Positions 9,088 to 29,976 of a stretch of 59,815 nt of DNA are shown piece after piece; position 1 is the first letter of the stretch, and the number at the start of each line of letters is the position of its first letter. The notes under the pieces are model-generated. The model did not search any database and was not told where the DNA came from. It saw only the letters and a program-made list of their open reading frames with translations. This stretch comes from a virus, in the IMG/VR virus record IMGVR_UViG_3300026078_000032, positions 1 through 59,815 of that record; one strand, written 5' to 3'. Made by a program: the position numbers and the translations under genes.

Positions 9088-9103
9088 TCGACTCCCGCCA
9101 CGT

Positions 9104-9121
9104 GCCCGGCTTCGGCCGGGC
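9104..9121. terminator. Intrinsic terminator, TTCG tetraloop
   Basis: GCCCGGC-TTCG-GCCGGGC, 17 bases after the previous stop. Confidence 0.7.
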
Positions 9122-9133
9122 TTCGTGGTGGAT

Positions 9134-9183
9134 AAAAGATCTTGGCCGAATGCCTTGAGACGAGGTGTGGCATGGGGTATATT
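9134..9183 (+). promoter_or_regulatory. AAAAGATCTTG-box promoter for 9220
   Basis: Box at 9134-9144, TTGAGA at 9155-9160, 17 bp, TATATT at 9178-9183. Confidence 0.75.
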
Positions 9184-9219
9184 TATCTCACACCACAACG
9201 ACAAGCCAAGGAGCCCGAA

Positions 9220-9489: not shown

Positions 9490-9504
9490 CCTCCCTACTC
9501 TCCC

Positions 9505-9527
9505 GCCCCGGCCACACCGGCCGGGGC
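9505..9527. terminator. Intrinsic terminator hairpin
   Basis: GCCCCGGCC and GGCCGGGGC arms, ACACC loop; 16 bases after the previous stop. The rest of the gap to 9650 shows no gene. Confidence 0.7.
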
Positions 9528-9649
9528 TGCTTGGTGGTGTGAGGCGCTCAGCGCGAGCGTGCGCGACGTTCCCGGCCCAGGATAGCCAGCATACCTACCC
9601 CGCAGCGCGACGCCACACAGGGCGTCTCCGGCTGTCAGGCAATTCGGCT

Positions 9650-9698
9650 AAAAGATCTTGCCATAACCCTTGAGACACCCTCAGGCGTGAGATACGAT
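9650..9698 (+). promoter_or_regulatory. AAAAGATCTTG-box promoter for 9735
   Basis: Box at 9650-9660, TTGAGA at 9670-9675, 17 bp, TACGAT at 9693-9698. Confidence 0.75.
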
Positions 9699-9734
9699 GG
9701 TACCATCGAAACAACAACAACCGAGGAGCCCACC

Positions 9735-10220
9735 ATGACCACCGCCACGATCGCCGCCCACGACATGTCCGACGAGGCGCTGACCCTCGCCCTCCACACC
9801 GCCGAGGAGATCGTCGCAGGCCGCATGCCCGCTGGTTCGTTCGACGTCAGCGACGTCATCACCAGCCACCGCGCCCTTGCCGCCGAGGCCGCCCGTCGTC
9901 GTCGCCAGCCGATCGTGAAGGAGATCACCGTGACCGAGCCCCAGGACCGCGCCACCAGCCACATCACCTGCACCCACCCTCGCACCAAGGTCGCGCGTGC
10001 CGCCTGCCGTCGGGCTCGTGCCCGTGCCGCGGAGCCCCAGGCGCCCGCGTACTCGCTGATCAAGACCGAGGCGCAGCTCGCCGAGGCCCGCTCGAAGATC
10101 GCCGCGAAGGGCTGCCAGGGCGAGGTCAAGTCGGGGGCTCGTAAGGGTCAGCGTTGCGGGCGTCCAACCGCCCAGGGCCAGATCGTTTGCTCCGGCCACG
10201 CCCGAAGCTTCAAGATCTAA
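9735..10220 (+). CDS. Small protein with HxxCxH knuckle and a C-terminal Cys/His segment
   Basis: 161 residues; ATG after GAGGAGCCCACC. A helical N-terminus, then SHITCTHPRTKVARAACRR near residues 74-92, an Arg/Ala linker, and a C-terminal segment with single cysteines and histidine (KGCQGEVKSGARKGQRCGR, VCSGH) that resembles a small Cys/His finger of the sort seen in DNA-tethering proteins. Probably nucleic-acid binding. Function unknown. Confidence 0.65.
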   Translation: MTTATIAAHDMSDEALTLALHTAEEIVAGRMPAGSFDVSDVITSHRALAAEAARRRRQPIVKEITVTEPQDRATSHITCTHPRTKVARAACRRARARAAEPQAPAYSLIKTEAQLAEARSKIAAKGCQGEVKSGARKGQRCGRPTAQGQIVCSGHARSFKI

Positions 10221-10234
10221 CCACCTCACCGCGA

Positions 10235-10259
10235 CGGCCCGGCCACACCAGCCGGGCCG
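10235..10259. terminator. Intrinsic hairpin
   Basis: CGGCCCGGC and GCCGGGCCG arms; lies between 9735-10220 and the gene at 10283, so it may weaken rather than block read-through. Confidence 0.6.
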
Positions 10260-10282
10260 TTGCCATCCCTAGGGAGCCTGAC

Positions 10283-10900
10283 ATGAAAGCCGTACCGACC
10301 GAGCTGGAAAGCCTCGAGTCGAGCCGCCAGCTCGTCCGATTCGCCCTCGCGCTGGGTGTGGCCGCGTCGTTGGCGGCGAACGTGCTCCATGCCGACACCA
10401 ACGTGATCTCTCGCATCATCGCCGCGTGGCCGCCTACCGCACTGATCGTCACGGTTGAGATCATCACGCGCATTCCCGGGCGAAGCGGGGTGATGAGCGG
10501 AATCCGCATCGCCGCAACGTCGATCGTAGCAGCCATCGCCGCCTGGGTGTCATACTGGCACATGGCTGGTGTGGCTCGTCGGTACGGCGAGACCTACATC
10601 AGCGCGCACATGATCCCGTTCTCGGTCGATGGGTTGATCGTCGTGGCGTCGATCTCTTTGGTCGAGGTGAACCGACGACTCGCTGTGTTGCTCACGGCTG
10701 AGAGCGTCGTAGAGGCGCCTCAGATTGACACTGACGCACCGAATAACGTCCCGCAGATGATTGCTCAGGTGACGCCTCGAGAGCCCTCACAGCGCGTCTC
10801 ACACCGTGTGGGCAACCACCAGCACTGCGATCATGACAACACCCGTGCAGCTCGGGCTGCGTGCCGTCGCACTCGGGCCGAGGCACTTACGCCCGCCTGA
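10283..10900 (+). CDS. DUF2637-like membrane protein fused to an HxxCxH knuckle
   Basis: 205 residues; ATG after AGGGAGCCTGAC. Four hydrophobic segments at about 20-38, 48-64, 78-97 and 115-134, with the layout of the actinobacterial DUF2637/SpdB-type membrane family (plasmid-spread proteins of Streptomyces). The cytoplasmic tail ends in NHQHCDHDNTRAARAACRR, the shared knuckle. So the module is fused here to a membrane anchor. It may tether the knuckle, or what it binds, to the cell membrane; inference. Confidence 0.7.
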   Translation: MKAVPTELESLESSRQLVRFALALGVAASLAANVLHADTNVISRIIAAWPPTALIVTVEIITRIPGRSGVMSGIRIAATSIVAAIAAWVSYWHMAGVARRYGETYISAHMIPFSVDGLIVVASISLVEVNRRLAVLLTAESVVEAPQIDTDAPNNVPQMIAQVTPREPSQRVSHRVGNHQHCDHDNTRAARAACRRTRAEALTPA

Positions 10901-10902
10901 CC

Positions 10903-10931
10903 TTGACCCTCTTGCCCGACCCAGATACAGT
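10903..10931 (+). promoter_or_regulatory. Promoter for 10964-11280
   Basis: TTGACC at 10903-10908, 17 bp, TACAGT at 10926-10931, followed by a 32-base leader with AAAGGAG. No AAGATCTT box. Confidence 0.65.
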
Positions 10932-10963
10932 CGAACTACGACACCGAGCCAAAGGAGCAAATC

Positions 10964-11137
10964 ATGAACGCCAGGGCTGGGCACTACGGAGGCGAACGCG
11001 ACAACCGCGGGGGCTACCGCGACCGCTGGGAGCGTGACAGCAGCCGCCGCCACGGGCGGCAGGTCGTGCGTCGCGAGCTTCGCGACATCCACCGCCGGGT
11101 TCGCCTGCAAGGCATCCAAGCCGCTGGAGATCGATGA
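10964..11137 (+). CDS. Small Arg-rich protein
   Basis: 57 residues (MNARAGHYGGERDNRGGYRD...), about one third Arg. AAAGGAG seven bases before the ATG. Likely nucleic-acid binding by charge alone. Overlaps the next frame by ATGA. Confidence 0.55.
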   Translation: MNARAGHYGGERDNRGGYRDRWERDSSRRHGRQVVRRELRDIHRRVRLQGIQAAGDR

Positions 11138-11280
11138 TGTACTCGTTCGAGTACCGCGACCGATGGGTCCGATCCTGCTGTCGGGAGAGATGCAACTGGA
11201 CGAGTGATTACGTTCGGCTCCAGATGGTGGCCAGGTGGCGTTGGCGGAAACATTTCAAGATCGTTCACAAAACTCCTTGA
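11134..11280 (+). CDS. Small basic Cys/Trp-rich protein
   Basis: 48 residues (MMYSFEYRDRWVRSCCRERC...), coupled to the upstream gene by ATGA. Its last codons run into the -35 region of the next promoter (CCTTGA serves as both Pro-stop and -35). No family recognised. Confidence 0.5.
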   Translation: MMYSFEYRDRWVRSCCRERCNWTSDYVRLQMVARWRWRKHFKIVHKTP

Positions 11281-11305
11281 GATGACCTCGGGCTCGAGAT
11301 AGGTT
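11277..11305 (+). promoter_or_regulatory. Promoter for 11338
   Basis: TTGAGA at 11277-11282, 17 bp, TAGGTT at 11300-11305. Only a half box (CAAGATC) upstream at about 11256. Confidence 0.65.
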
Positions 11306-11337
11306 TATCTCAACACCTCAACGACAGGGAGCCCGAA

Positions 11338-11646
11338 ATGACCACTCACGCGAACTGCACCCACCCGGCCACCAAGGCCGCTCGCGCCACCTGCCGCAGG
11401 ATCAACGCCGACCACGCCGCTGCCAAGGCCGCTCTCGAGGCCCTCCCCTACCGCCTCGAATCGATCAACGCCCGGGACGTCACCGAAGGCATGGAGCTCG
11501 TCGTCCCCACCGGCCACGCGATCGTCAAGAAGATCGGCTTTGCCAACGACATCATGCGGCAGGGCTGGCGCTTCAAGATGAGCCAGGGCGACGACCTCGT
11601 CTTCTCCTTCCACAACGAGAAAGTTATCTGCGTGATCCCCAACTGA
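11338..11646 (+). CDS. Small protein with N-terminal HxxCxH knuckle
   Basis: 102 residues; ATG after GGGAGCCCGAA. Begins MTTHANCTHPATKAARATCRR, the clearest copy of the shared knuckle, then a helix and a strand-rich C-terminal domain (about 45-102; VVPTGHAIVKKIGF, GDDLVFSFHNEKVICVI) of about SH3-like size. Function unknown. Confidence 0.7.
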   Translation: MTTHANCTHPATKAARATCRRINADHAAAKAALEALPYRLESINARDVTEGMELVVPTGHAIVKKIGFANDIMRQGWRFKMSQGDDLVFSFHNEKVICVIPN

Positions 11647-11661
11647 TCCCTCGCCGCCGGG

Positions 11662-11683
11662 CCCCTCCCACACCTGGGAGGGG
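11662..11683. terminator. Intrinsic terminator hairpin
   Basis: CCCCTCCCA and TGGGAGGGG with a CACC loop, followed by TTCTT. Confidence 0.75.
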
Positions 11684-11695
11684 TTCTTCGGTGCC

Positions 11696-11724
11696 TTGAC
11701 ATGCCAGTCAGCAGGGGATAGGGT
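11696..11724 (+). promoter_or_regulatory. Leaderless promoter for 11731
   Basis: TTGACA at 11696-11701, 17 bp, TAGGGT at 11719-11724, six bases, ATG. Confidence 0.7.
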
Positions 11725-11730
11725 TGTCTC

Positions 11731-12378
11731 ATGACGACAACGACCCGCACCAACCGCCCGGCCTCAGTACCGCAGATTAACTTCCTGCGCGATCTGCTGG
11801 CTGAGCGCCAGCCCGAGCAGCTCTCACTCCTCGATCGGCTCCTTGCCGACGAGCGCCTCAACACGTTGATGGCTTCGGAAAAGATCAACTACCTCAAGAC
11901 CCTTCCGAAGATCGCGCAAACGGTCTCGAGCCGTCCCGCGACTGAGCGTCAGACCGAGTACGTGATCGACTTGCTCGAGAGCCGCGTTCATGACCTTGAC
12001 GCCGAGGCTGAGATCGCAGGGCTCACGTTCACTCGGGCCCGCGAGATCATCGAACTGCTCAAGGCTGCCAAGAAGAGCACCAAGGCGTGGCACGGTTTGA
12101 TCTCCGGGTACTACGCCGTGCCCGACCCCTCGGACCCGTCGACCACGCTTTTCCGCAAGGTCGACACCAAGGGGCGGGTGTGGATCATCTCAGGCCCGAA
12201 CCACCTGCCCGCCGATCGTACCGACCAGGCCATCCCCCTGATCCAGGTGGACCCGAAGTTCGCCGCCGCTCATTACGGCCAGGTGATCGGACGCTGTGGT
12301 CGTTGCCACACCCGCCTGACCGACAAGGAGAGCCGCGACATCGGTCTCGGCCCCGTGTGCCGCAAGCGCAGCTGGTAA
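11731..12378 (+). CDS. DUF6011-type protein with C-terminal zinc finger
   Basis: 215 residues, leaderless start at 11731. The C-terminus (CGRCHTRLTDKESRDIGLGPVC, about residues 190-211, cysteines spaced as a four-Cys finger) is the DUF6011 signature common in actinophages. The N-terminal 110 residues are helical with repeated RPAT/RPAS-like turns (TNRPASVPQINFL, SSRPATERQTEYV) that look like an internal duplication. The middle is a strand-rich domain. Role unknown; the domain pairing is typical of single-strand DNA or RNA handling proteins. Confidence 0.7.
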   Translation: MTTTTRTNRPASVPQINFLRDLLAERQPEQLSLLDRLLADERLNTLMASEKINYLKTLPKIAQTVSSRPATERQTEYVIDLLESRVHDLDAEAEIAGLTFTRAREIIELLKAAKKSTKAWHGLISGYYAVPDPSDPSTTLFRKVDTKGRVWIISGPNHLPADRTDQAIPLIQVDPKFAAAHYGQVIGRCGRCHTRLTDKESRDIGLGPVCRKRSW

Positions 12379-12428
12379 AAAGATCTTGGCGGGGCGCCTT
12401 GACGCACTCGAGGCGCCCATGCCATAAT
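12378..12428 (+). promoter_or_regulatory. AAAAGATCTTG-box leaderless promoter for 12435
   Basis: Box at 12378-12388, TTGACG at 12399-12404, 18 bp, CATAAT at 12423-12428, then six bases to the ATG. Confidence 0.7.
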
Positions 12429-12434
12429 TAAGGC

Positions 12435-12815
12435 ATGACAACGAGCCACGCGAACTGCACGCACGACGCGACGAAGACCGCCCGTGCGGCATGCCGTCGC
12501 CAGGCCGCCGCGAAGCGCATCCACACCGCCAGGGTTGAGGCCGCGATGATCGCCGTTGACGATCAGTACGTCAGGGCCATCGAGATTGTCGAACTGGGCG
12601 CCATCAGTCGAATCCGGGGCCACCTCTTCAAGATCGTCTCCTCTGACGGCCTGACCACTTACCGCACATCGACGACCGGGCACTGCAACTGCCCGGCTGG
12701 CTTGCACCGATTTCGCGCCGTGCCTCGCACCCTGAAGAACGGCCAGCCCGGCGCCGAGGTTTGCTACCACGTGCTCGCCGCTCGCGTCAAGGCTGCGTCC
12801 TACGTGTCCGTGTGA
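12435..12815 (+). CDS. HxxCxH knuckle fused to a SWIM-type zinc finger
   Basis: 126 residues, leaderless. Begins MTTSHANCTHDATKTARAACRR (knuckle), followed by a helix, then a SWIM-like finger: CNC at about 75 with a CYH at about 109 (C-x-C...C-x-H). SWIM fingers bind DNA or protein. Second case in this block of the knuckle joined to a different domain. Confidence 0.7.
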   Translation: MTTSHANCTHDATKTARAACRRQAAAKRIHTARVEAAMIAVDDQYVRAIEIVELGAISRIRGHLFKIVSSDGLTTYRTSTTGHCNCPAGLHRFRAVPRTLKNGQPGAEVCYHVLAARVKAASYVSV

Positions 12816-12876
12816 CGTCCGCCCCCGATTCGCGCATACACGTGATGAGGGGGCATTTCAAGGGTCGGGCTACGTG

Positions 12877-12917
12877 AAAAAGATCTGTTTGATTGATCGG
12901 TAACACTGTGTTACTAT
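12877..12917 (+). promoter_or_regulatory. Box-containing leaderless promoter for 12924
   Basis: AAAAAGATCTG at 12877-12887, TTGATT at 12889-12894, 17 bp, TACTAT at 12912-12917, six bases, ATG. Confidence 0.65.
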
Positions 12918-12923
12918 GTACGC

Positions 12924-13139
12924 ATGACAACGAACCGTACCCGCATTGACCATCGAAACCACGACCACCCCAACACCAAGCGAGCCCGCGAGCTGTGCCG
13001 TCAGGGGCAGCCAAAGTCGAGCCCCTCCTACACCCCCGCACTCGAGCTGGTGTGGAAGCCGGCCCCAGGTGTGGAGCATGTCGTGGTCGAGGTTCCCCTA
13101 GAGGATCTTGAGTCCGCCTTGAGAAGCCCCGCCGCCTGA
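12924..13139 (+). CDS. Small protein with variant HxxHxH knuckle
   Basis: 71 residues, leaderless. N-terminus DHRNHDHPNTKRARELCRQ keeps the T-K-x-A-R-x2-C-R core but has His where the other copies have the first Cys. C-terminal half strand-rich (VEHVVVEVPLEDLESAL). The next promoter box lies inside its last codons. Confidence 0.6.
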   Translation: MTTNRTRIDHRNHDHPNTKRARELCRQGQPKSSPSYTPALELVWKPAPGVEHVVVEVPLEDLESALRSPAA

Positions 13140-13148
13140 TGATAGGGT
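13101..13148 (+). promoter_or_regulatory. Box-containing leaderless promoter for 13155
   Basis: GAGGATCTTG at 13101-13110 inside the upstream gene, TTGAGA at 13119-13124, 18 bp, TAGGGT at 13143-13148, six bases, ATG. Confidence 0.6.
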
Positions 13149-13154
13149 CATTCT

Positions 13155-13505
13155 ATGACCGATCAACCACCATTTTCTTGGCTTGACTCAGGCCGACCCG
13201 GGCACCCGGGGTGGATTATCAACAACCGAGAAGTGCCTCAGGATCCCCAGCAGGCCCTGTACGTCGATGCCGTCAAGAACGCCATGCTCGGGGTCGTTCT
13301 CCCCTGGCTCACAACGGTCTGCCCCGAGTGTGGACTCGATCTTCTCGAGTATGGGGAAGAAGCACAGGGTGATCATGTGATGCTCGGGCAGTTCGTGATC
13401 GTTGGGTGTGAGGGGTACTTGATCGTGAACCCGAACGCCGTAGGGATCTTCCGCATGAACTGGCACGACTGGCGAGGCGACGCCAACGAGCTGCCCCAGA
13501 CCTAG
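13155..13505 (+). CDS. Hypothetical protein with one CPEC pair
   Basis: 116 residues, leaderless. One CPECG pair near residue 56 and a lone Cys near 85 may hold a metal. The N-terminal part is Pro/Gly-rich, the C-terminal part strand-rich. No family recognised. Confidence 0.6.
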   Translation: MTDQPPFSWLDSGRPGHPGWIINNREVPQDPQQALYVDAVKNAMLGVVLPWLTTVCPECGLDLLEYGEEAQGDHVMLGQFVIVGCEGYLIVNPNAVGIFRMNWHDWRGDANELPQT

Positions 13506-13555
13506 GAAGGATCTTGACTGTACCCCTTGCCTTGCGCCGAGGCATGGGGTATAGT
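13506..13555 (+). promoter_or_regulatory. Box-containing leaderless promoter for 13562
   Basis: AAGGATCTTG from 13507, TTGCCT at 13527-13532, 17 bp, TATAGT at 13550-13555, six bases, ATG. Confidence 0.7.
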
Positions 13556-13561
13556 TGTCTC

Positions 13562-13837
13562 ATGACGAACCACACGAAGTGCAGTCACGAAGCCACGAAG
13601 TCAGCCCGAGCGAAGTGCCGTAAGGATCGCGCGAAATTCAACGCTGAGATTGCCGAGGCGATCAAGACCGGGCCAAAGGTTGATCTTGCTGCCGAGCGAG
13701 CCCGAGAAATCGCGGCAACTCTCCCAGCTGACCCGTTCACCCTGTTTCCTCAGGCTGAAGATGACTGGGCTGACCCCGATCAATGGTACGGCACGGGTGA
13801 CGACTCGGGCCCCGGGGATGCTGACCTGCTCGACTGA
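13562..13837 (+). CDS. Small protein with N-terminal HxxCxH knuckle
   Basis: 91 residues, leaderless. Begins MTNHTKCSHEATKSARAKCRK, then a helix and a Pro/Asp/Trp-rich acidic tail (AEDDWADPDQWYGTGDD). Function unknown; another partner for the shared knuckle. Confidence 0.65.
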   Translation: MTNHTKCSHEATKSARAKCRKDRAKFNAEIAEAIKTGPKVDLAAERAREIAATLPADPFTLFPQAEDDWADPDQWYGTGDDSGPGDADLLD

Positions 13838-13935: not shown

Positions 13936-14133
13936 ATGGTTTCCCATGTGGACTGCAATCACCCCAACACCAAGGCTGGCCGGGCAGCCTGTCGCAAGGT
14001 TGCCGCGGGTGGTGAGGCCCCGAGGCCCAGGGCACCTCGCGCAGAAGCCAAGCCGACCACGGCTCCCGTGGTCGAGTCCACACCGGAGCCGGCCGCTGAG
14101 GAGCCCAAGCGTCGCTTCTTCGGTCGTCGCTGA
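13936..14133 (+). CDS. Small protein with N-terminal HxxCxH knuckle
   Basis: 65 residues; ATG after GGAGGAAACCCG. Begins MVSHVDCNHPNTKAGRAACRK, then a Pro/Ala/Glu-rich linker and a basic end (KRRFFGRR). Looks like a knuckle on a flexible tail. Last gene of the rightward block. Confidence 0.65.
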   Translation: MVSHVDCNHPNTKAGRAACRKVAAGGEAPRPRAPRAEAKPTTAPVVESTPEPAAEEPKRRFFGRR

Positions 14134-17524: not shown

Positions 17525-17937
17525 GGCAGATATTCCGGGATCGGGAGATCCTCTATCATCGTTCGACCACGAGCCCGCAGTGCTCGGGCTCCTTCGGTCC
17601 CCAGCGAAGACCGATCGACAAGTTCCCCCAGCTCATCAGTTAGTGCCCGATCAAAAACCCGAGTATTTGCCTGGCGGGTCTCAGCCAGCTTCTCCTCGTC
17701 AGGTTGCCCACACCTACGGACGTATGAGAGATCAAGGGCGGGCCAACCGAACGGGCGCCAACAGACGATTGTAGGTACCTTGAGAGGGACGCCGTCCTCA
17801 TCAGTGTATCGACTGTTGCCTCCCTTACCCACGCGATTGTCCCAGGTTGACTGCTCTGATGGCTTATTGTAGAGAACGTCATGCTTGGGGAGCACCACAT
17901 TCTCTCTACGCCAAGGGGTGTTCGGTGAGTGGGTCAT
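17521..17937 (-). CDS. Hypothetical protein
   Basis: 138 residues, starting MTHSPNTPWRREN. Contains VPTIVCWRPFGWPALDL (about 54-70) and a helical, charged C-terminus. No family recognised. Coupled by ATGA overlap to the polymerase gene upstream and the exonuclease downstream, so a helper of DNA replication or modification is plausible. Confidence 0.65.
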   Translation of the reverse strand: MTHSPNTPWRRENVVLPKHDVLYNKPSEQSTWDNRVGKGGNSRYTDEDGVPLKVPTIVCWRPFGWPALDLSYVRRCGQPDEEKLAETRQANTRVFDRALTDELGELVDRSSLGTEGARALRARGRTMIEDLPIPEYLP

Positions 17938-20465
17938 GCCGCCTCCATGATTCTTGGGTCCCAGTTCAAAGCTTGCTCGGTAGTGAGTTCCTTTGTATCA
18001 CCAGCCCAGTGGCGCCCGACAGTAATGTCCGCAACTAGGGGGACTCTCATTGTGTAGCCGAACAACTTCTCGAGCGGCGGGTTCTCCATGTGTTGCTTGA
18101 TAAGAACCAGTGCTCGAGCCATCTCCTCCTCGGGGATCTCGAATAGGATCGAGTCGTGAACGGTGCCCACCACAATCGAACGCATCCCGATGGTGCGGAA
18201 AAGGCGTGAGATATTGGTCAATGCAAGTAGTGTAATGTCCGAGGCGAGAGATTGAACAGGTGAGTTGATCGCCTGACGTTCTGCTTCCGCCTGCACCTCA
18301 CGGTTGGGTGAGAGAATATCGGGCAGGTGGCGGACCCGACCAAGTGGGGATTCTACTCGATGGTACTTGTAAACGAGGCGCTTTTGCTTGGCATGCCACG
18401 CGACAAGATCAGGCCACATCTCGAAGAAAGCCTGGCGACTGGCTTGGGCTTCTGCATTCGTAAATCGGAGCCCGTAATTAAGCCAAGCAATATCTTGGAA
18501 TTTCCCCCAAGAAGCCCCGTATAGGTATCCGAAGTTTACGGGCTTGGCGTGCTTCCTAATCTCCTTCCACTGCACAGCGAGGATTGGATCGGCTAGGATC
18601 TCAGCCTTACTCTTCCCCATCATCCGCTCAGCCATGGCGGTGTGGAGGTCGAGCCCATTCTGGTAGTGCCAGATCATGTTCCGCTCGCCAGACGCCTCGG
18701 CAGCAATGCGGAGTTCAACCTGGCTCTGGTCGCCCTGGACAAACCACCACCCAGGTCTTGATCCGAAACATCCCCGCATAAGCGGGTCTCGAGGCACCTG
18801 CTGCATGTTGAACCCGCGAACCTGCTTCTTCGCCGTTACCTTTTCCTCATCAGGCTTCCCTGAGGAAAGACGCCCGGTAACCGTCCCAGTGAGTTTAAAG
18901 GTAGTGTGGAGGCGACTTTCTTCGGTGAGCTGCTCAGACCAGGGCTCAAAGAAAGACCCACATTTCCTAGCCCAGTTGGTTCGCTCGAGCAAGAGCTTAG
19001 GTACCTCATGCTGCTCAGCCAACTCCATCATAACGCCTTCAGAGACGCTCGGGTCACCTGGCCTACCATCATCCTTTGGCTTACCCCGAGCTAGTACTGG
19101 AAGGCCTAGATGCTCGAAGAGGAACCAACGGAGGAACTTTGATGGGTTGAAGTTTACTGGGAAAGGTAGTTCCTTGGGGAGCCAGGGATGGAGCTGGTCT
19201 TCAATGGCATGCAGATTCTCCTCCGCCTTTTTCCAATTAGCTCGAAGCAAACGAGAATCCACATAAATGGCATTGATCTCAGCTGTGGTAATCTCCTCCG
19301 AAGCTCCCACCAATAGGTGAGCCATGAGCTTGGCAAGCCTCGGCTGCTTAATGAGGTCTTTCTTGAGGTGATCATAGAGCCGCAATGTCCAATAGGTGTC
19401 TAGGCCATTGTACTCGAGCACCTCGGGCAACGGGGTTCGGAGCAGGTCATGGGTATCAATACCCCACGGCTCTGCCCCCAAGAGCTGCTGGCATAGCGGC
19501 TTAAGAGCCTTTGTGCGGGTTTCGTCCAACAGATGAGCAGCCAGCATAGTGTCGAACGTGAGGGGGAAATCAGCATCCACATGAGCGAACTGGCGCATCC
19601 AGCGAAGGTCGAACTTCCCATTGTGAGCGACTCGCTTACGGATCCGTTGGAGGATTCGACAGACAAATCGGAGAACCTTTTCCCAGTCACGGCGGAATGG
19701 ACTCTGAGGGTGGTAGAGAGGGACCGCATAGTTGACTATTTCTCCCCCGGGCATCTTCACCGAGATTGAAATAGACACCAGCTTTGAGTCAGCCTCCCAC
19801 TCATTGAACCCTGTAGACTCGACATCGAACGAAGCGAGCTCCACACCGGAGACGATGTCAGCGTCCATCGCCTTGAGCCCGGCCAAAGTCATTACGTGGC
19901 GAACCTCTATAGGCTCGCGCTCAGCCACTTTACCCGTTACCAACGCCGCGAAGTAGGACAAGTCTGCGGTAAAGCCATCGGCCATCCGCGGGTTTCGGAT
20001 CATCATGCTCGGCGAGATGGTCGCGAATACCTTGGCACCAGAAGGATGATCGAACGTCTTCCCGCGGTACTTCATGATGCCACTGTGTCCGGTCAAGGAC
20101 AGCAACGCCTCATTCCCGAGGGCAATGATCCACCCAGGCTTGACTACCCCGATCTCACGGTCGAGGAAGGTGCGGCAAGCCTTGACATCTCGAGCCGACG
20201 GGTCCGTATCCCACACCCGACACTTCACCGCTGCGGTGTGGAACATGTCCCGATAGTCGAGCCCAGCTCGAGAAAAGCCCTCAGAGAGGGCCTGGTGGTA
20301 TGCCTTACCTCCCGCGGATTTACTGACTACCAGGACCGAGGCTGTCTCAAGCCCCGACCCAGTAACGCAGATGTCAAGGGAGTCATTGGTCAAACCCGAC
20401 AGCCGACACCCAGTACAAGCGGCATCCCTAACTTGGAGACGAACCCTCTTGTTCATCTCGACCAC
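17934..20465 (-). CDS. DNA polymerase I with N-terminal uracil-DNA-glycosylase-like domain
   Basis: About 843 residues. Start taken at GTG 20465 (AGAGGAAG six bases upstream); ATG 20456 is nearly as good. Residues about 10-165: family-4 UDG-like fold, with CTGC, two further cysteines (VKCRVWD, ACRTFL) that complete an iron-sulphur set, and IIALGNEALLSLTG. Then a 3'-5' exonuclease (FDVESTG; RVAHNGKFDL; EYNGLDTYW) with its acidic residues intact, and a family A polymerase with motif A GDQSQVELRIAA, motif B RKHAKPVNFGYLYG and motif C VGTVHDSILFE. No 5' nuclease. UDG-like domains on phage PolA are known, for example in SPO1, which has hydroxymethyluracil DNA. Replicates phage DNA. Confidence 0.9.
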   Translation of the reverse strand: MVEMNKRVRLQVRDAACTGCRLSGLTNDSLDICVTGSGLETASVLVVSKSAGGKAYHQALSEGFSRAGLDYRDMFHTAAVKCRVWDTDPSARDVKACRTFLDREIGVVKPGWIIALGNEALLSLTGHSGIMKYRGKTFDHPSGAKVFATISPSMMIRNPRMADGFTADLSYFAALVTGKVAEREPIEVRHVMTLAGLKAMDADIVSGVELASFDVESTGFNEWEADSKLVSISISVKMPGGEIVNYAVPLYHPQSPFRRDWEKVLRFVCRILQRIRKRVAHNGKFDLRWMRQFAHVDADFPLTFDTMLAAHLLDETRTKALKPLCQQLLGAEPWGIDTHDLLRTPLPEVLEYNGLDTYWTLRLYDHLKKDLIKQPRLAKLMAHLLVGASEEITTAEINAIYVDSRLLRANWKKAEENLHAIEDQLHPWLPKELPFPVNFNPSKFLRWFLFEHLGLPVLARGKPKDDGRPGDPSVSEGVMMELAEQHEVPKLLLERTNWARKCGSFFEPWSEQLTEESRLHTTFKLTGTVTGRLSSGKPDEEKVTAKKQVRGFNMQQVPRDPLMRGCFGSRPGWWFVQGDQSQVELRIAAEASGERNMIWHYQNGLDLHTAMAERMMGKSKAEILADPILAVQWKEIRKHAKPVNFGYLYGASWGKFQDIAWLNYGLRFTNAEAQASRQAFFEMWPDLVAWHAKQKRLVYKYHRVESPLGRVRHLPDILSPNREVQAEAERQAINSPVQSLASDITLLALTNISRLFRTIGMRSIVVGTVHDSILFEIPEEEMARALVLIKQHMENPPLEKLFGYTMRVPLVADITVGRHWAGDTKELTTEQALNWDPRIMEAA

Positions 20466-21096: not shown

Positions 21097-21528
21097 TCAT
21101 ATCAACCTCAAGACTTCAAGTGAGGCGGACATGAGGAGCTCCAACCCGTCCATGACTCGGTGTTCCTCATACCACACCACACGAACTACTCCGGCATTGA
21201 TGATGAGTTGGGCGCAGGCCCGACAAGGTACTCGAGTAGTGTGGAGCTCAGAGGACTCGAGGGCTACCCCATTGCGAGCAGCCCAGGCGATGCCGTTTGC
21301 CTCTGCGTGGACTGAGATGTGACAACCATCCTTACCGAGGTAGTAAGACTGAGCATCCTGTGAATGGTCGCAGTGAGCCATCCCAGCAGGTGCACCGTTG
21401 TATCCAGTTGAAAGAATGCGGCCTGCCTTGGAGAAGACTGCACCGACCTGCGCGCGACTGCATGTCGAACGTTGCGCGAAAATGCGGGCAGTATCCATGA
21501 GAGTGATGTCACGCGATGGTCGGGTCAC
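21097..21528 (-). CDS. dCMP deaminase
   Basis: 143 residues from GTG 21528, overlapping the upstream stop (GTGA). Zinc and catalytic residues are intact: His74-Ala-Glu76 (SVHAEAN) and PCRAC with Cys102 and Cys105. GYNGAP near residue 43 is usual for the deoxycytidylate deaminase family. Converts dCMP to dUMP, feeding pyrimidine supply. Sits directly downstream of two thymidylate-synthase-family genes, as in phages that remodel their pyrimidines. Confidence 0.9.
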   Translation of the reverse strand: MTRPSRDITLMDTARIFAQRSTCSRAQVGAVFSKAGRILSTGYNGAPAGMAHCDHSQDAQSYYLGKDGCHISVHAEANGIAWAARNGVALESSELHTTRVPCRACAQLIINAGVVRVVWYEEHRVMDGLELLMSASLEVLRLI

Positions 21529-22295
21529 AGATCCCCCTCGAGAAGGTGAAGTGAGGTGATGTGGAGGATTACTCGAGCGGGCTCCACTGGGCCATATGAG
21601 TCTCGCCAGGTTGTTTCCTCACAAACCCACTGGAGGAGCCGAGCTGCCATGTAGATGTCATCGCGGAGATGCCGGGTGAACTCACAGGACCTCATGAAGT
21701 AGCGGACCGTCATGAAGTTGTTCCGCACCATGAAGTGGTACCCAAGTGAGCAGGGGACCCGAGCTTTCACATTCGCCGCGGCGAGGTCTTCTGGGAACCA
21801 CACAGGGAGATAAGCCTGGCGAGTGAGAGGGTTTCGCTCAAAGAGGCGGAGAACATCCTCCAGATCCCCATACTCGAAGCGGATACCTCGGTTAGCCCAT
21901 TCTGGCCCCTGAGTATACTTCGGCCAGAATCGCTCAGGGTAGGTGTGGCTAAAAGCCTGCCCAGTCTGATGCCGAGTTGTGTCCCCATAGGGCCATCGTT
22001 CATGACTCGGCGGCGGGTTGAGGGGCCGGCCTGAGACGCGCTCAGCGAAGTGCTCATCGGCCCAGGGTAGGGTAGGCTGGGCTCGGCGCTGTAACTCGCT
22101 CGGGGGCTCACCTGGGACCACTGGGAAGGCAATAGTCACGTCTTCAAGCTCGCGCGTAACGTGGGCAGGCGAGCCCGAAACATCCTGGGCGTGCCACTCC
22201 CCTACCTCAACCCTCTGGGCATGCCTCAAGTCGGCTTTGATGATGGAGTACATGTCAGGGAAGAATGCCGCCCCCGCCGAGTAATCCCGCATCAT
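21525..22295 (-). CDS. Thymidylate-synthase-family protein, probable dCMP hydroxymethylase
   Basis: 256 residues. The fold is clear from RGIRFEYGDLEDVLRLFERN, the nucleophile Cys182 (RVPCSLGYHF), Arg202-Ser203 (RS-x-D/E) and a conserved downstream block. Eleven residues after Arg202, where thymidylate synthase has Asn (E. coli Asn177, in FNIAS), this protein has Asp213 (RDDIYMA). In T4 gp42 the equivalent Asp179 sets preference for dCMP. So the likely reaction is dCMP to 5-hydroxymethyl-dCMP with methylene-tetrahydrofolate. Reads from an ATG coupled to the small membrane gene upstream. Confidence 0.75.
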   Translation of the reverse strand: MMRDYSAGAAFFPDMYSIIKADLRHAQRVEVGEWHAQDVSGSPAHVTRELEDVTIAFPVVPGEPPSELQRRAQPTLPWADEHFAERVSGRPLNPPPSHERWPYGDTTRHQTGQAFSHTYPERFWPKYTQGPEWANRGIRFEYGDLEDVLRLFERNPLTRQAYLPVWFPEDLAAANVKARVPCSLGYHFMVRNNFMTVRYFMRSCEFTRHLRDDIYMAARLLQWVCEETTWRDSYGPVEPARVILHITSLHLLEGDL

Positions 22296-22384
22296 TCCCT
22301 CCAGGCCCGAATGAACCAGGTAACCAAGGTGATGAGAGAGCCGATTCCAGCAAATATCATGAAGATCAGGATTGCCAACTCCAT
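22292..22384 (-). CDS. 30-residue single-helix membrane peptide
   Basis: MELAILIFMIFAGIGSLITL... then WFIRAWRE: one membrane helix with a basic end. ATG three bases after the upstream stop; TGA inside the next ATGATG, so it is tightly coupled on both sides. Function unknown. Confidence 0.5.
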   Translation of the reverse strand: MELAILIFMIFAGIGSLITLVTWFIRAWRE

Positions 22385-22386
22385 GA

Positions 22387-23370
22387 CTACCCTTCTCCGG
22401 CCATCACGGCAGTCATATCCAGTGCTTCCTCGTCCTCCTCGGCATACGCCACGAGGTCCGAGACCAGATCCATCCGGGGCCTGGCCAGCTTGCCAAAGTC
22501 GAGTGTGGACAGCATGCGCGAGGGTAGGGGCTGGAATGCCTTCCGCTGGCTACCGACGGAATGGTCACCCCCCGCGTATGGGTTGGTCTCCGGGTCGATG
22601 CCGAGGAGCTCGGAGTGCATGCGCTTGCGGATGCGTCGGACCTGCCCGAACTTCATATCCCCGTAGAGCTTACCCTCGGCGTCCTCCTTCTGCATGGAGA
22701 GAAGCCACTTCTTGGTGATTCGGACGCCAGGCTTACTGCGATCATTCGGGTCCCAGTTCTCGATGAGCTCTCGGTGCTCGGGGTCCATGAGAGTCGCAGC
22801 CATCGACTTGAATCCGTGGTACTGGGCCATGTCGACGACCCACACGAAGGACATGTCCTCGACTTCGATACCGAGCCGCTCGCCGATGAGCTCTCCGATG
22901 TGCTGCGCCACGCGGATGTCAAGGGCGGCAATGTACCCGATGTACGAGGTGCGTGAGTGCAGGGTGATCTGAGGTGTGGGATTGCGGCGGAAGGTGACCG
23001 CGAGCATACACGATCCCCACTTCCGCCACTCGCGGCTCGCGTTCTGATGGACGGCGACCATGTTGGTCCGCAGCGTTGCCACACCACGAGAAGTGCGTCG
23101 GGGCATCCTGGCCTGGATGGCATTGAGAAAGTTTTCGAGGGCGACCGGGTCGATGTACTGGCGAATGAGCATGTTCCAGCGGAACTCGCCGAGCCACATG
23201 CTCTTGAGGTCCATGTCGAACTGGAAGCTCTTGGCGTGGCACATCACATTGTGGAGCTGAGTGTCCACTGACGTCGCGACGTCGAGCGTCTCAGCGTCAC
23301 CTGTGGCGAGCCGACGGAGCAGCCCCGAGTGCATCTGGTCGACGGTCCCAAAGCGATATGCGTGGAGCAT
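22387..23370 (-). CDS. Second thymidylate-synthase-family protein (paralogue)
   Basis: 327 residues. Middle part aligns with the thymidylate-synthase core: Cys121 (WGSCMLAVTF) as nucleophile, Arg140 (HSRTSY) 19 residues later, and Asp151 (AALDIRVAQH) exactly 11 after that Arg, again at the Asn position of true thymidylate synthase. VWVVDMAQYH matches the late His block. The N-terminal 110 and C-terminal 130 residues have no clear match. Could be a hydroxymethylase for a second base, a tailoring enzyme or a non-catalytic partner of the 21525-22295 protein. Confidence 0.65.
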   Translation of the reverse strand: MLHAYRFGTVDQMHSGLLRRLATGDAETLDVATSVDTQLHNVMCHAKSFQFDMDLKSMWLGEFRWNMLIRQYIDPVALENFLNAIQARMPRRTSRGVATLRTNMVAVHQNASREWRKWGSCMLAVTFRRNPTPQITLHSRTSYIGYIAALDIRVAQHIGELIGERLGIEVEDMSFVWVVDMAQYHGFKSMAATLMDPEHRELIENWDPNDRSKPGVRITKKWLLSMQKEDAEGKLYGDMKFGQVRRIRKRMHSELLGIDPETNPYAGGDHSVGSQRKAFQPLPSRMLSTLDFGKLARPRMDLVSDLVAYAEEDEEALDMTAVMAGEG

Positions 23371-23969
23371 CAGGCCTTCTCTCCCAGAACTCGAACGTAC
23401 TCGGCGTGGAGCCGTTCCTGGCGAAGCTCACAGTCGAGCGAGTGGTACACGGTACCACGGATGTTCACGTTCTGCCCAGGGTAGTCATCCAGTGCCCGGC
23501 CACACGGGCACTTGCCTTCGCTGGCGTTGTAGGACTCGCCGGGCTTCATGTGGCGGTTCCAGTTGACGTCGTTCTTCTCCATGAAGACCTGGAAGAACTC
23601 ATCCGAGGTGCAACCAGCGGCGAGAATGAGGTTCACCAGGAAGTGCGTGGCATCTACGCCTTCGCGGATGTAGGCGTCGCGGTTGAACTTGGTCTTGTCC
23701 GAGGACCAAGGCTTCCACGCCATCTCGGCGAGCATCTCGTGGAGCTCGTCCATGAGCGCGAGCATCTGGTCTTTGATGTATCGCGACCGCTCCTCGGGCT
23801 CGAAATCGGCCGGGTCCACACCCCCGTGGAGGTGGGCCTGGAGGGCCCGCTGACGGTGGAAGATCGTGGAGAGCCGATCGCGCGTGGTGAGCTTGAGTGT
23901 CGGTTCGAGAAGATCCGTGACATCCTCGCCACCGATCTGAACCTTACCATGTGAGCCAATCAGGGTCAT
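23370..23969 (-). CDS. All-alpha dUTPase/dCTPase (MazG-like)
   Basis: 199 residues; ATG 23969 after AGGAGATCTCA. ELHEMLAEMAW (E-x2-E) and EGVDATHFLVNLILAAG (D-x2-HF-x2-N) are the metal and substrate motifs of the all-alpha NTP pyrophosphatase family, to which dimeric dUTPases and T4 dCTPase gp56 belong. A Cys/His C-terminal piece (KCPCGRAL ... HSLDC) is an added zinc site. In this context it may remove dCTP (and dUTP) so that normal cytosine is not incorporated; the substrate cannot be told from sequence. Confidence 0.75.
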   Translation of the reverse strand: MTLIGSHGKVQIGGEDVTDLLEPTLKLTTRDRLSTIFHRQRALQAHLHGGVDPADFEPEERSRYIKDQMLALMDELHEMLAEMAWKPWSSDKTKFNRDAYIREGVDATHFLVNLILAAGCTSDEFFQVFMEKNDVNWNRHMKPGESYNASEGKCPCGRALDDYPGQNVNIRGTVYHSLDCELRQERLHAEYVRVLGEKA

Positions 23970-23978
23970 TGAGATCTC

Positions 23979-24200
23979 CTACTGGGCGTGTGCGTGGAAG
24001 TAGCCGGACCAGAAGTGGGCAAAGCACTTGTCCTCGTCGGACAAGTCGTTGCTCAGATAGATGGTGTGCTGGGCCTTGCGCACCTCATCGGCATTGGCTG
24101 GGTTGAACTTCACAATCTCCTGCTCAGTACCTTCTTCAAACAGTACTACCTCCTCGCCAATCTGTTGGATGAGGAACCTCTCACTCGGGAGCCGAGCCAT
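23979..24200 (-). CDS. Hypothetical protein
   Basis: 73 residues starting MARLPSERFLIQQIGEEVVLFEEGTE; strands then helix, ends with Trp, His, Tyr. Sits between the dUTPase-like and kinase genes with overlap to the latter. No family recognised. Confidence 0.6.
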   Translation of the reverse strand: MARLPSERFLIQQIGEEVVLFEEGTEQEIVKFNPANADEVRKAQHTIYLSNDLSDEDKCFAHFWSGYFHAHAQ

Positions 24201-24754
24201 CAGAACCTCCAGGACTTGATGTGAGAATCGATCATCGAGACGGTAGAGAGAATGGACTGGGGATTACTACGGATGAACGTCGTGGCCTTGCCTGTCCAAG
24301 ACAAACTCAAGGTACGATAAGCCATCCAGATCGCGTGGGCGTTGTCGACTACCCCGTCCATCTGGCCTTTCGGGTCGCTGGTAACGGCGTCCTTAACCGC
24401 GTCCCACCCCGGGTCGACAAACACCACGAGAGCCTGATGGCGAATGGTGTTGAGTCGAGAGCGGTACCAACTGGAGAGGAATGCCTGACTGAGAGAGCCC
24501 CTAATGAGAGTACCATAGATCGGCTCGGAGATCAGCGGGTAACGGTCATAGATGCGAGGACCATAGCCTTCCTTAGCCCAGTCCCCAATCTCATTGTCCA
24601 CCCACCTGGTGAGACCATCAAGACCGTGGTGGCTCACCCCGCCGATGCTAGTGGAAGCCCTCGGGCCGAGCTGCAGGTTTCGGAAGAACCTGGTTCGGAG
24701 AAGCTTGATCAGATAGGACTTGCCAGCCCCGTCGCATCCCTCAACGAGAATCAT
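24200..24754 (-). CDS. dNMP kinase (thymidylate-kinase-like)
   Basis: 184 residues. P-loop EGCDGAGKS at 5-13 and a DRYP segment (IYDRYPLISEP, near 70) are those of thymidylate kinase-like enzymes. Would phosphorylate deoxynucleoside monophosphates, including a modified one, toward triphosphates. Start overlaps the upstream TGA (ATGA). Confidence 0.75.
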   Translation of the reverse strand: MILVEGCDGAGKSYLIKLLRTRFFRNLQLGPRASTSIGGVSHHGLDGLTRWVDNEIGDWAKEGYGPRIYDRYPLISEPIYGTLIRGSLSQAFLSSWYRSRLNTIRHQALVVFVDPGWDAVKDAVTSDPKGQMDGVVDNAHAIWMAYRTLSLSWTGKATTFIRSNPQSILSTVSMIDSHIKSWRF

Positions 24755-25254: not shown

Positions 25255-26808
25255 TCAAAGCTCGTCTGGATGATCCACAATCCAACGTCCGACTTGTCCA
25301 TCTCCCTGTAGTGCCCGAAGGTGTGCGATATCGACTGTGCCACGGGCCAGGATGTGGACCATGTCCACTGTACGGTTCAAAGCCACGCGGTCCGAGCATT
25401 GTTTGTAGTTAGTCCAACTCAGATCGAGGGTATACCACACGAAGCGGGCGGCCGATGATAGATCAATCCCAACCCCTCCCGCCTTGGGCTGGATAACGAA
25501 GATGGCAGGCCCGGACTCCTCTCGGAATTGCTTGAGCTCCGCGTGCATCTGCTCAGCTGGGATGGTCCCGTCCAGTCGATACGCGGAAGCCTGGGGCCAT
25601 CGCTCATCCACCATTTTCAGGATCGAGACAATATCCGCTCGGAATCGAGCTGCAACCACTACTTTCTCATCGTGCCCGAACCACTCATCCAGCAATTCCC
25701 CGAGGGCGTCCAACTTCTCTCGACCCACCCGGACCAAGCGGTCTCGACCAGTCGGGCTATTCTCAGCGTCGATCTTCGCCACACCAGCGGCAATCTGGCT
25801 AAGCCGAAGGCTCTTCACGGCTGCAGTGGAGGCCACGATCTGCCCGGACTTAATCCCAGCAATCATCTCCTCCTTGAGCGTGTCGTATACTTTACGTGTT
25901 CGCGGAGCAAGCGTCACGAGGACATCGCGTGGTGTGGGGTCAGGCATATCGAAACACTCGTGACGGGTAATTGAGAAGGAATCCCTCTTGATCCGACGCT
26001 TAATATCCTCCAACCCTGGCTCACGGTATCGGACGATCTTTCTTATGGGCCCGATATTCCTCCAGAGCCCATAGTGGTTCCGAAAATCTTCATCGGTCCT
26101 TAGGTCCTTAAAGCGGTTAGGGTTGAGGAATAGCCACTGCATTCTCAGATCCGCGATCCGCTCTGCCCCTGTGACCGGGGTCCCAGTCATGATCATTCGC
26201 CTGGCAAACAGAGGCCCCAGGGAAACCAACATCCGAGCTGCTTGAGCAGTTGGATTCTTGATAAGATGGCTTTCGTCCAAGATCATCCCAACTGGGGATT
26301 CTGGGGCTACCACACCAGCCGGTGCAATTGTCCTGCGACGTCCTCGGCGCGCCCGCGGCTTCTTTGCTGGTACCTTAACCCCCATCCAAGCCAGCAAAGC
26401 CTTTACTGTTTTCTCGGAAGAAGCACCCACGAAAGCCTCGTAGTTAACCACAACTATCGAGAGATCCCGGACACTAGCCGGAGCCCTGGGTGGACCTTCC
26501 CTACGCTTCTCAGCATCCCAAAGCTGGACTTGGATATTCAGGCGACGCTTAGTCCCGTCCTCATCCACTCTCCATCCACGATGGACTCGAATCTCCTCCC
26601 TCCACACCCCCATGACTCGTTTGGGTGAGACAACCACCCAGCGCTTGACTCCGTGTTGGAGGGCCTCCACGCACATCCAGTCCACGGCCACTTTCGTCTT
26701 GCCTGTTCTCGGCTCCATTAGGAGCGCACCACCGAAACCGCCGCGTCGCATCTTCGCGAGCGCGGCGGCCTGGTGGCGGTACGGTTTCGTAGCGAACTCG
26801 TACCGCAT
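25255..26808 (-). CDS. SNF2-like superfamily 2 helicase
   Basis: 517 residues. Walker A EPRTGKT at 32-38, DESH box at 178-181, and the second RecA domain with VGIDLSSA and a QCSDRVAL segment (degenerate motif VI). Resembles compact phage SNF2/DEAH helicases. An ATP-driven DNA translocase, probably for replication or recombination. GGACTAGAGG precedes its ATG. Confidence 0.85.
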   Translation of the reverse strand: MRYEFATKPYRHQAAALAKMRRGGFGGALLMEPRTGKTKVAVDWMCVEALQHGVKRWVVVSPKRVMGVWREEIRVHRGWRVDEDGTKRRLNIQVQLWDAEKRREGPPRAPASVRDLSIVVVNYEAFVGASSEKTVKALLAWMGVKVPAKKPRARRGRRRTIAPAGVVAPESPVGMILDESHLIKNPTAQAARMLVSLGPLFARRMIMTGTPVTGAERIADLRMQWLFLNPNRFKDLRTDEDFRNHYGLWRNIGPIRKIVRYREPGLEDIKRRIKRDSFSITRHECFDMPDPTPRDVLVTLAPRTRKVYDTLKEEMIAGIKSGQIVASTAAVKSLRLSQIAAGVAKIDAENSPTGRDRLVRVGREKLDALGELLDEWFGHDEKVVVAARFRADIVSILKMVDERWPQASAYRLDGTIPAEQMHAELKQFREESGPAIFVIQPKAGGVGIDLSSAARFVWYTLDLSWTNYKQCSDRVALNRTVDMVHILARGTVDIAHLRALQGDGQVGRWIVDHPDEL

Positions 26809-29330: not shown

Positions 29331-29416
29331 ACCGAGGGGACTGGCTCCTATTGATAGGAGTGGTCCTGTGGATCCTGGCCATGCTGACTATCTCGATCCT
29401 ATCCATCCATCTCTGA
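29327..29416 (+). CDS. 29-residue membrane peptide
   Basis: MNRGDWLLLIGVVLWILAML... is one hydrophobic helix after a short charged start. ATG overlaps the preceding TGA (ATGA), and its 3' part overlaps the UDG-like gene in another frame. Similar in size to the peptide at 22292-22384. Confidence 0.45.
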   Translation: MNRGDWLLLIGVVLWILAMLTISILSIHL

Positions 29417-29976
29417 TCCCCACCCAGCGACCCCTCATCTTGGGCGCGTGTCCATCAGAGGAGCAGGAGACCAAACGGCCTTTCTCGGGGAAGTCAGGTC
29501 GACAGATCACTAACTTACTCCCCGAAGCATTCCACTTGGATTCGTTGGACCAGATTTTCGACCTGGCTTACCTAATCCCTCAGTACTCAACGGATCGATT
29601 CAATCGCCATAAGGCGAGGGTTGGTGTGGCAAACCTCATCCGGGCTGGCCAGATTCGCCCAGGTCGTTTGGTGGTTGCCATGGGCAGCAATGTGGTGAAA
29701 ACCACCTGTGCTTCAGGCCAACAACCCCACGGGCTCTTCCACGCCCGCCAAGTCCAAGCCCCGAGTCTACACCTGAAAGTCCAGGCCCGCGCTGGCGCCC
29801 GTAGCTGGGGCATGATGGCGGGCGAATTCTGGCTCGTTTCATTCCCCACACCCCCACAGCTTCGGTCTCAAGCTCGGCTGGTTCGAGAAGCCTTGGCTTG
29901 CTTGGTAGCTGGTGATTACCTTGCCCTCGAGCAGGGGACCGGGTGTACTCGTTGCCGATCAGAGCCTAGGTTGTAA
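29368..29976 (+). CDS. Uracil-DNA-glycosylase superfamily protein
   Basis: 202 residues from GTG 29368 (AGGAG seven bases upstream); an in-frame ATG at 29272 would add 32 poorly conserved residues. ILGACPSEEQ at 24-33 and RPFSGKSGRQI at 37-47 match the glycosylase pocket motif of UDG families 4-6 (G-x-x-P-x2-E...PF-x-G-x-x-G), and VVAMGSNV fits the later strand. The iron-sulphur cysteines of family 4 are not present. A second UDG-like protein beside the one fused to the polymerase; its target base is unknown. Converges on the tail gene with an 11-base overlap. Confidence 0.6.
   Translation: MDPGHADYLDPIHPSLIPTQRPLILGACPSEEQETKRPFSGKSGRQITNLLPEAFHLDSLDQIFDLAYLIPQYSTDRFNRHKARVGVANLIRAGQIRPGRLVVAMGSNVVKTTCASGQQPHGLFHARQVQAPSLHLKVQARAGARSWGMMAGEFWLVSFPTPPQLRSQARLVREALACLVAGDYLALEQGTGCTRCRSEPRL

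What the first reader, a model, noticed from the sequence alone, without database searches (positions are those of the whole stretch)
21097..24754. T4-like gene set for modified pyrimidine DNA in an actinophage
Within 3.7 kb lie a dCMP deaminase (HAE, PCRAC), a thymidylate-synthase-family protein with the Asn-to-Asp change that marks dCMP hydroxymethylases (Cys182, Arg202, Asp213), a second such protein, an all-alpha dUTPase/dCTPase and a dNMP kinase, read as one coupled operon. T4 uses the same set of activities (cd, 42, 56, 1) to make 5-hydroxymethyl-dCTP and keep normal dCTP out of its DNA. The phage genome may therefore carry 5-hydroxymethylcytosine or a derivative.
Basis: partly seen in the sequence, partly recalled or inferred. 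Interest (0 to 1): 0.85.

Follow-up and report, generated by a model that had tools for sequence, protein, structure and literature searches.

The report
Phage cytosine-modification operon, unusual enzyme pair
This virus carries a compact set of genes that most likely swaps its cytosine for an altered version, built around two relatives of the enzyme that normally makes thymidine, one of which forms a previously unrecognised class, so many common phages of soil bacteria may have altered DNA that nobody has looked for.

Summary
Within 21097-24754 (minus strand) lie a dCMP deaminase, a thymidylate-synthase (TS) homologue with Cys182, Arg202 and Asp213 (TS-A), a second protein that is TS-like only by structure prediction (TS-B), a homologue of T4 gp56 (dCTPase/dUTPase) and a TMK-like P-loop kinase. 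The order kinase, PPase, TS-B, TS-A, deaminase, Pol I recurs in about 100 independent phage loci (actinophages, Serratia, Pseudomonas, Yersinia, Brevundimonas). In 19 of 59 records a separate ThyX is present, and two others have a full ThyA, so the pair is not simply the dTMP synthase. Asp213 and the lost His147 match the published signature of TS proteins from cytosine-modified phage DNA.

The specific claim of a T4-type dCMP hydroxymethylase is only partly supported. The residue three before the catalytic Cys separates the known classes: Leu in the TS checked, Asp in T4 gp42 relatives (55/55), Glu in RB69 5-hydroxy-dCMP synthase relatives (14/14), Asn in Xp12-like relatives (7/8). In TS-A it is Arg in 169/169, and TS-A forms its own clade. 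No TS C-terminal tail and no DHFR argue against methylation. Best reading: a dCMP-modifying module, product probably 5-hydroxymethyl-type but undetermined. No DNA chemistry has been measured.

The parts
21097..21528 (-). dCMP deaminase (DCD), HAE and PCRAC zinc motifs
   Evidence: PF00383 5e-19, phrog_174 2.5e-47, ComEB TIGR02571 3e-23 (below its cut-off); downstream of TS-A in 100 of 102 independent loci
21525..22295 (-). TS-A: thymidylate-synthase-family enzyme of a distinct class; Cys182 (codon 21750-21752), Arg179 (21759-21761), Arg202, Asp213 (21657-21659)
   Evidence: phrog_160 3e-24; hhalign to T4/RB69/M6/SPO1/DLP4/GodonK/ThyA profile E 2.7e-18; AF2 pLDDT 86, Z 17.1 to MilA and AfhB; own clade 100/99; Arg at -3 in 169/169
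22387..23370 (-). TS-B: second TS-fold protein, Cys121, Arg140, Asp151, plus a C-terminal extension (about residues 198-327) outside the TS match
   Evidence: AF2 pLDDT 91; VIA-align Z 15.7 to AfhB, 15.2 to MilA, about 11 to ordinary TS; phrog_13667 7.5e-81; Cys/Arg/Asp invariant in 71 relatives
23370..23969 (-). All-alpha NTP pyrophosphatase, dCTPase/dUTPase-like (T4 gp56 relative) with a Cys-rich C-terminal tail
   Evidence: PF08761 1.6e-10, T4 gp56 pairwise E 3e-7, conserved E75/E78/D106/N136 shared with T4 and RB69 gp56
23979..24200 (-). 73-aa protein of unknown function inside the operon
   Evidence: open frame sharing 1 nt with the kinase frame
24200..24754 (-). P-loop kinase resembling thymidylate/dNMP kinase
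   Evidence: phrog_761 thymidylate kinase 1.4e-7 over the P-loop only; P-loop and DR motif conserved in 14 relatives; 6 of 14 members match PF02223
17934..20465 (-). DNA polymerase I with N-terminal UDG-superfamily domain, conserved downstream neighbour
   Evidence: PF00476 8e-68, PF01612 1.3e-14, PF03167 2.3e-12; downstream in 101 of 102 loci

Best explanation
This is a cytosine-replacement module. The gp56-like PPase removes dCTP (and dUTP) and supplies dCMP. TS-A attacks C6 of dCMP with Cys182, reads the cytosine with Asp213, and transfers a one-carbon unit from methylene-tetrahydrofolate to C5. Without the TS tail and without Leu at -3 it does not finish by hydride transfer, so the product is a 5-(substituted-methyl)-dCMP, most likely 5-hydroxymethyl-dCMP. 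The kinase and host NDP kinase raise it to the triphosphate, and the phage Pol I incorporates it; the deaminase turns leftover dCMP into dUMP for thymidine. TS-B, a second TS-fold enzyme with the same Cys-Arg-Asp set, acts with or after TS-A on the same nucleotide pool. Shown here: gene content, fold, active-site residues, synteny, absence of DHFR. Inferred: substrate, product, role of TS-B, presence of modified cytosine in virion DNA.
For: Asp213 (Asn177 equivalent) and Ser/Thr instead of His147 in all TS-A checked, the two residues most associated with cytosine-modified contigs in PMC8670742. T4 gp56 homologue, deaminase and kinase fixed in the same order in about 100 loci. Separate ThyX in 19 of 59 records and full ThyA in two more, so TS-A/TS-B are not simply the dTMP source. 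No DHFR in 59 records or the window, whereas the Xp12-related phage DLP4 has DHFR beside its TS. TS-A has a median of 21 residues after the His207 equivalent (6 in the window), against 64 in the DLP4 class, 31 in T4 and 15 in RB69. Closest folds are cytidine-nucleotide enzymes MilA and AfhB, tied with ordinary TS for TS-A but clearly ahead for TS-B. 5-hydroxymethyl is the commonest known non-reductive outcome (general knowledge).
Against: TS-A lacks the Asp/Glu at -3 that T4 dCH needs (D145N makes no 5hm-dCMP, PMC6400193); it has Arg in 169/169. The Arg127 equivalent is Gln. None of the decorating enzymes searched (carbamoyltransferase in 59 records, TAGT in 24) was found, and no other family recurred near the cassette. 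No mass spectrometry or digest data were found for any cassette phage. The deaminase and PPase also occur in phages with normal DNA.
Confidence: 0.5

Rival explanations
1. TS-A is a dCMP methylase, giving 5-methylcytosine DNA as in Xanthomonas phage Xp12.
For: A single Asn-to-Asp change turns L. casei TS into a dCMP methylase (cited in PMC8670742), and that mutant structure is the best PDB sequence match.
Against: TS-A lacks the long C-terminal tail kept by the DLP4/Xp12-like class, has Arg not Asn at -3, sits outside that clade, and no DHFR is encoded in 59 cassette records.
Confidence: 0.1
2. TS-A or TS-B is a flavin-dependent 5-hydroxylase like RB69/HY126 AfhB, giving 5-hydroxy-dCMP.
For: AfhB (9iqu, 9iqc, with dCMP and FAD) is the top Foldseek hit of TS-A and the best Z for TS-B; same short tail.
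Against: AfhB relatives have Glu at -3 in 14/14, TS-A Arg; for TS-A the Z scores of AfhB, MilA and ordinary TS are tied; Glu85 is invariant in TS-A, a possible Glu58 equivalent (folate-type chemistry); no sugar or glycosyltransferase genes recur nearby.
Confidence: 0.12
3. Ordinary thymidine supply: TS-A makes dTMP from dUMP produced by the deaminase and dUTPase; the DNA is unmodified.
For: Deaminase, dUTPase-like protein and TMK-like kinase are the usual set for dTMP synthesis; annotators call TS-A thymidylate synthase.
Against: Asp at 177, no His147, no tail; ThyX or ThyA present as well in a third of the records.
Confidence: 0.1
4. TS-A and TS-B are obligate halves of one heterodimeric enzyme, each completing the other's active site (compatible with the best explanation as to the product).
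For: TS-B is followed by TS-A in 106 of 107 loci; TS enzymes are dimers that share arginines across the interface (family knowledge).
Against: TS-A stands alone in 14 loci; distances in TS-A and TS-B correlate only weakly (rho 0.31).
Confidence: 0.18

Closest known systems
T4 dCMP hydroxymethylase (gp42)
   Same: TS fold, catalytic Cys, Asp at position 177, Thr/Ser for His147, no long C-terminal tail, works beside gp56, deaminase and dNMP kinase
   Different: Asp at -3 in T4 (55/55 relatives), Arg in TS-A; separate clade; T4 has one such enzyme plus glucosyltransferases, here two TS-fold proteins and no decorating enzyme found
RB69 / HY126 AfhB 5-hydroxy-dCMP synthase
   Same: TS fold, Asp177, Thr147, short tail, top structural hit
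   Different: Glu at -3; FAD; arabinose genes nearby in RB69
Streptomyces MilA CMP hydroxymethylase
   Same: TS fold tied for best Z, Asp for cytosine
   Different: Asp at -3; acts on CMP in antibiotic synthesis
Xp12-like / DLP4 TS (5-methylcytosine phages)
   Same: Asp177, no His147, deaminase and pyrophosphohydrolase adjacent
   Different: Asn at -3, long C-terminal tail, DHFR in the operon
phrog_13667 (unknown function)
   Same: TS-B is a full-length member
   Different: this work assigns it to the TS fold with Cys, Arg and Asp retained

Membership tests
T4-type dCMP hydroxymethylase | TS fold with catalytic Cys | tested here: met
T4-type dCMP hydroxymethylase | Asp at the Asn177 position | tested here: met
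   Asp213, all TS-A relatives
T4-type dCMP hydroxymethylase | Asp or Glu three residues before the Cys | tested here: not met
   Arg179; Arg in 169/169 TS-A, Asp in 55/55 T4 relatives
T4-type dCMP hydroxymethylase | Ser/Thr two residues before the active-site Tyr | tested here: inconclusive
   His117 stands two before invariant Tyr119, but the N-terminal alignment is uncertain
T4-type dCMP hydroxymethylase | No long C-terminal tail | tested here: met
T4-type dCMP hydroxymethylase | dCMP to 5hm-dCMP activity | not testable with these tools
   needs enzyme assay
Thymidylate synthase (ThyA) | Asn177 and His147 | tested here: not met
   Asp213, Ser183
Thymidylate synthase (ThyA) | Conserved C-terminal tail | tested here: not met
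   median 21 residues after the His207 equivalent, 6 in the window
Xp12/DLP4-type dCMP methylase | Asn at -3, long tail, DHFR adjacent | tested here: not met
AfhB-type 5-hydroxy-dCMP synthase | Glu at -3 | tested here: not met
   14/14 in the RB69 class, 0 in TS-A
AfhB-type 5-hydroxy-dCMP synthase | Flavin cofactor | not testable with these tools
   needs purified protein
TS superfamily (for TS-B) | TS fold | tested here: met
   Z 15.7, rmsd 3.9, 189 residues to 9iqu
TS superfamily (for TS-B) | Detectable sequence homology to TS | tested here: not met
   profile comparison with TS-A and reference TS probability under 10%
T4 gp56-like dCTPase/dUTPase | All-alpha NTP-PPase with metal-binding acidic residues | tested here: met
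   PF08761, gp56 match, E75/E78/D106
dNMP kinase (T4 gp1-like or TMK) | P-loop and TMK DR motif above family threshold | tested here: inconclusive
   motifs present but Pfam sub-threshold for the window protein

The most novel reading that the evidence does not exclude
TS-A is a new catalytic class of the TS superfamily: with Arg in place of the water-activating Asp, the methylene intermediate on dCMP is captured by something other than water or hydride (for example an anionic or amine nucleophile), and TS-B carries out a second step, giving a C5-substituted cytosine not yet described in DNA, in a wide range of actinophages and proteobacterial phages.
Probability: 0.17. Interest if true: 0.92.

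Novelty: new variant of a known kind. Interest (0 to 1): 0.66.

Why it matters
At least 85 sequenced phages, including Muddy (used against Mycobacteroides abscessus) and most of the Gordonia phages found, carry this pair with TS-B annotated as hypothetical and TS-A as thymidylate synthase. If the reading is right, their DNA carries altered cytosine that could explain resistance to restriction and Cas9-type attack and would affect how they are engineered and sequenced. The class-specific residue before the catalytic Cys gives a simple way to sort phage TS genes by likely product, and TS-A makes a chemically unexplained active site testable in isolates that already exist.

Tried and rejected
A single-sequence search for TS-B in viral contigs gave nothing; the alignment query gave 71 loci. 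Papers on HY126 AfhB and glycosylated 5-hydroxycytosine are not held. The Yersinia phage paper gave no DNA data on P744. I considered a conserved small membrane protein between TS-B and TS-A (30-aa frame in the window): only 4 of 109 loci have such a frame, against 3 of 145 in a background stretch, so rejected as a conserved feature. TS-A/TS-B co-evolution: rho 0.31, no more than TS-A with Pol I, so no support for a tight complex. Carbamoyltransferase (5cmdC route) and TAGT glycosyltransferase: none found. Kinase kinship to the RB69 kinase: only the P-loop aligns. Tail lengths rest on regular expressions and are approximate.

Full report
What is in the sequence. The record is a 59,815-base virus contig. 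On the minus strand, in transcription order, lie a SNF2-type helicase (25255-26808), a short unknown gene, a P-loop kinase (24200-24754), a 73-aa gene, a dUTPase_2-family pyrophosphatase (23370-23969), TS-B (22387-23370), TS-A (21525-22295), a dCMP deaminase (21097-21528) and Pol I with an N-terminal UDG-superfamily domain (17934-20465).

TS-A. Pfam sees it only weakly (4.7e-4, below cut-off), PHROGs strongly (3e-24). Profile comparison with T4 gp42, RB69 orf48, M6, SPO1, DLP4, GodonK and ThyA gives E 2.7e-18 and pairs the Cys, Arg-Ser and Asp. The AlphaFold2 model (pLDDT 86) is a TS fold, Z about 17 to MilA, AfhB and many TS alike, so the fold alone does not choose the chemistry. Cys182, Arg202 and Asp213 are invariant in 69 relatives.

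TS-B. It has no sequence match to anything named. The model (pLDDT 91) is a TS fold over residues 1-197; AfhB and MilA score Z about 15, ordinary TS about 11. Cys121, Arg140 and Asp151 are invariant in 71 relatives and spaced as in TS (the spacing is read directly from the sequence). The adjacent genes of Serratia, Pseudomonas, Yersinia and Brevundimonas phages are homologous to TS-B (hhalign probability 97, E 9.5e-12). The remaining roughly 130 C-terminal residues have no assigned fold here.

Conservation. tblastn finds TS-A in 115 and TS-B in 85 phage records. There are 109 independent loci with both genes. In the subsets with enough flanking DNA, TS-B is followed by TS-A in 106 of 107, the kinase is upstream in 99 of 104, the PPase in 86 of 104, the deaminase downstream in 100 of 102 and Pol I in 101 of 102. 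TS-A without TS-B occurs in 14 loci, mostly contigs without the cassette. This is a functional unit, not a chance neighbourhood.

Substrate. Position 177 tells uracil from cytosine in this family: Asn in the hydroxymethyl-uracil enzymes of M6 and SPO1, Asp in T4, MilA, RB69 and DLP4 (PMC5175136). TS-A has Asp in every copy. In MetaGPA, Asp177 and a changed residue 147 were the two positions most associated with contigs selected for modified cytosine (PMC8670742); TS-A has Thr or Ser at 147 in 169 of 169. Dedicated dTMP makers coexist: ThyX in 19 of 59 records, full ThyA in two of 24. dCMP is therefore the likely substrate. This is inference from family rules.

Product. The residue three before the Cys separates the classes I could check: Leu in the TS of Huwbert and L. 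casei, Asp in T4 (55/55), M6, SPO1, GodonK and MilA, Glu in RB69 relatives (14/14), Asn in DLP4 relatives (7/8), Arg in TS-A (169/169). In T4 this Asp activates the water that becomes the hydroxyl, and D145N makes no product (PMC6400193). TS-A therefore fails a published defining feature of dCMP hydroxymethylases and should not be filed as one. A tree of the catalytic half puts TS-A in its own clade (100/99), though long branches make its position among the classes unsafe. Two features still favour non-reductive, hydroxymethyl-like chemistry over methylation: the missing C-terminal tail and the absence of DHFR in the window and in 59 cassette records, while the Xp12-related phage DLP4 encodes DHFR beside its TS. 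AXL1, DLP4 and Xp12 belong to the same group, Xp12 with 5-methylcytosine throughout (PMC9206674). Host DHFR could serve, so this is suggestive only.

Context that sharpens the alternatives. RB69's enzyme, formerly taken for a hydroxymethylase, makes 5-hydroxy-dCMP (PMC13390438), and the PDB titles of 9iqu and 9iqc describe a dCMP hydroxylase and a riboflavin-dependent monooxygenase. TS-family genes with Asp177 thus have at least three outcomes. No decorating enzyme was found: no carbamoyltransferase, no TAGT glycosyltransferase in 24 records, and no other family recurs beside the cassette except replication genes and small unknowns. A simple monomer-level base is the parsimonious expectation.

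Verdict. The named product, 5-hydroxymethylcytosine, is the leading single guess but not established.

Noticed in passing
window 22292-22384 (-): A 30-aa hydrophobic frame (MELAILIFMIFAGIGSLITLVTWFIRAWRE) fills the TS-B/TS-A gap, 2 nt after the TS-B stop and overlapping the TS-A start by 4 nt; not conserved in other loci.
   Followed up: yes
window 29368-29976 (+) and 17934-20465 (-): Two UDG-superfamily regions: one fused to Pol I (PF03167 2.3e-12), one stand-alone (PF03167 E 0.0012, below cut-off). A UDG-like frame also recurs in a few related loci.
   Followed up: partly
window 8123-13837 (+) and 57386-57682 (-): Seven otherwise different small proteins share a motif H-x2-C-x-H-x2-T-[KR]-...-R-x2-C-R-[RK], like a zinc-binding tag; an eighth near-match lies in 13936-14133.
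   Followed up: partly
L013 4217-7273: In this contig TS-A is followed by an asparagine-synthetase/glutamine-amidotransferase-like gene and a deaminase, with a cytidylyltransferase-like gene upstream: a possible amide-type decoration (names judged from sequence only).
   Followed up: no
L021 5898-8669: A human-gut phage record has two tandem TS-B-like genes followed by TS-A; L027/L107 also has two TS-B genes.
   Followed up: partly
L022 5755-6639: Gordonia phage GodonK TS has Asp at both -3 and 177, the key residues of the published dCMP-hydroxymethylase signature, so it is a better candidate for 5hmC than the window.
   Followed up: partly
window 23373-23500 (-): The PPase has a Cys-rich C-terminal tail (CPCGRAL...C), with similar tails in KimJongPhill, Shrew and Huwbert but absent from T4 gp56.
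   Followed up: no
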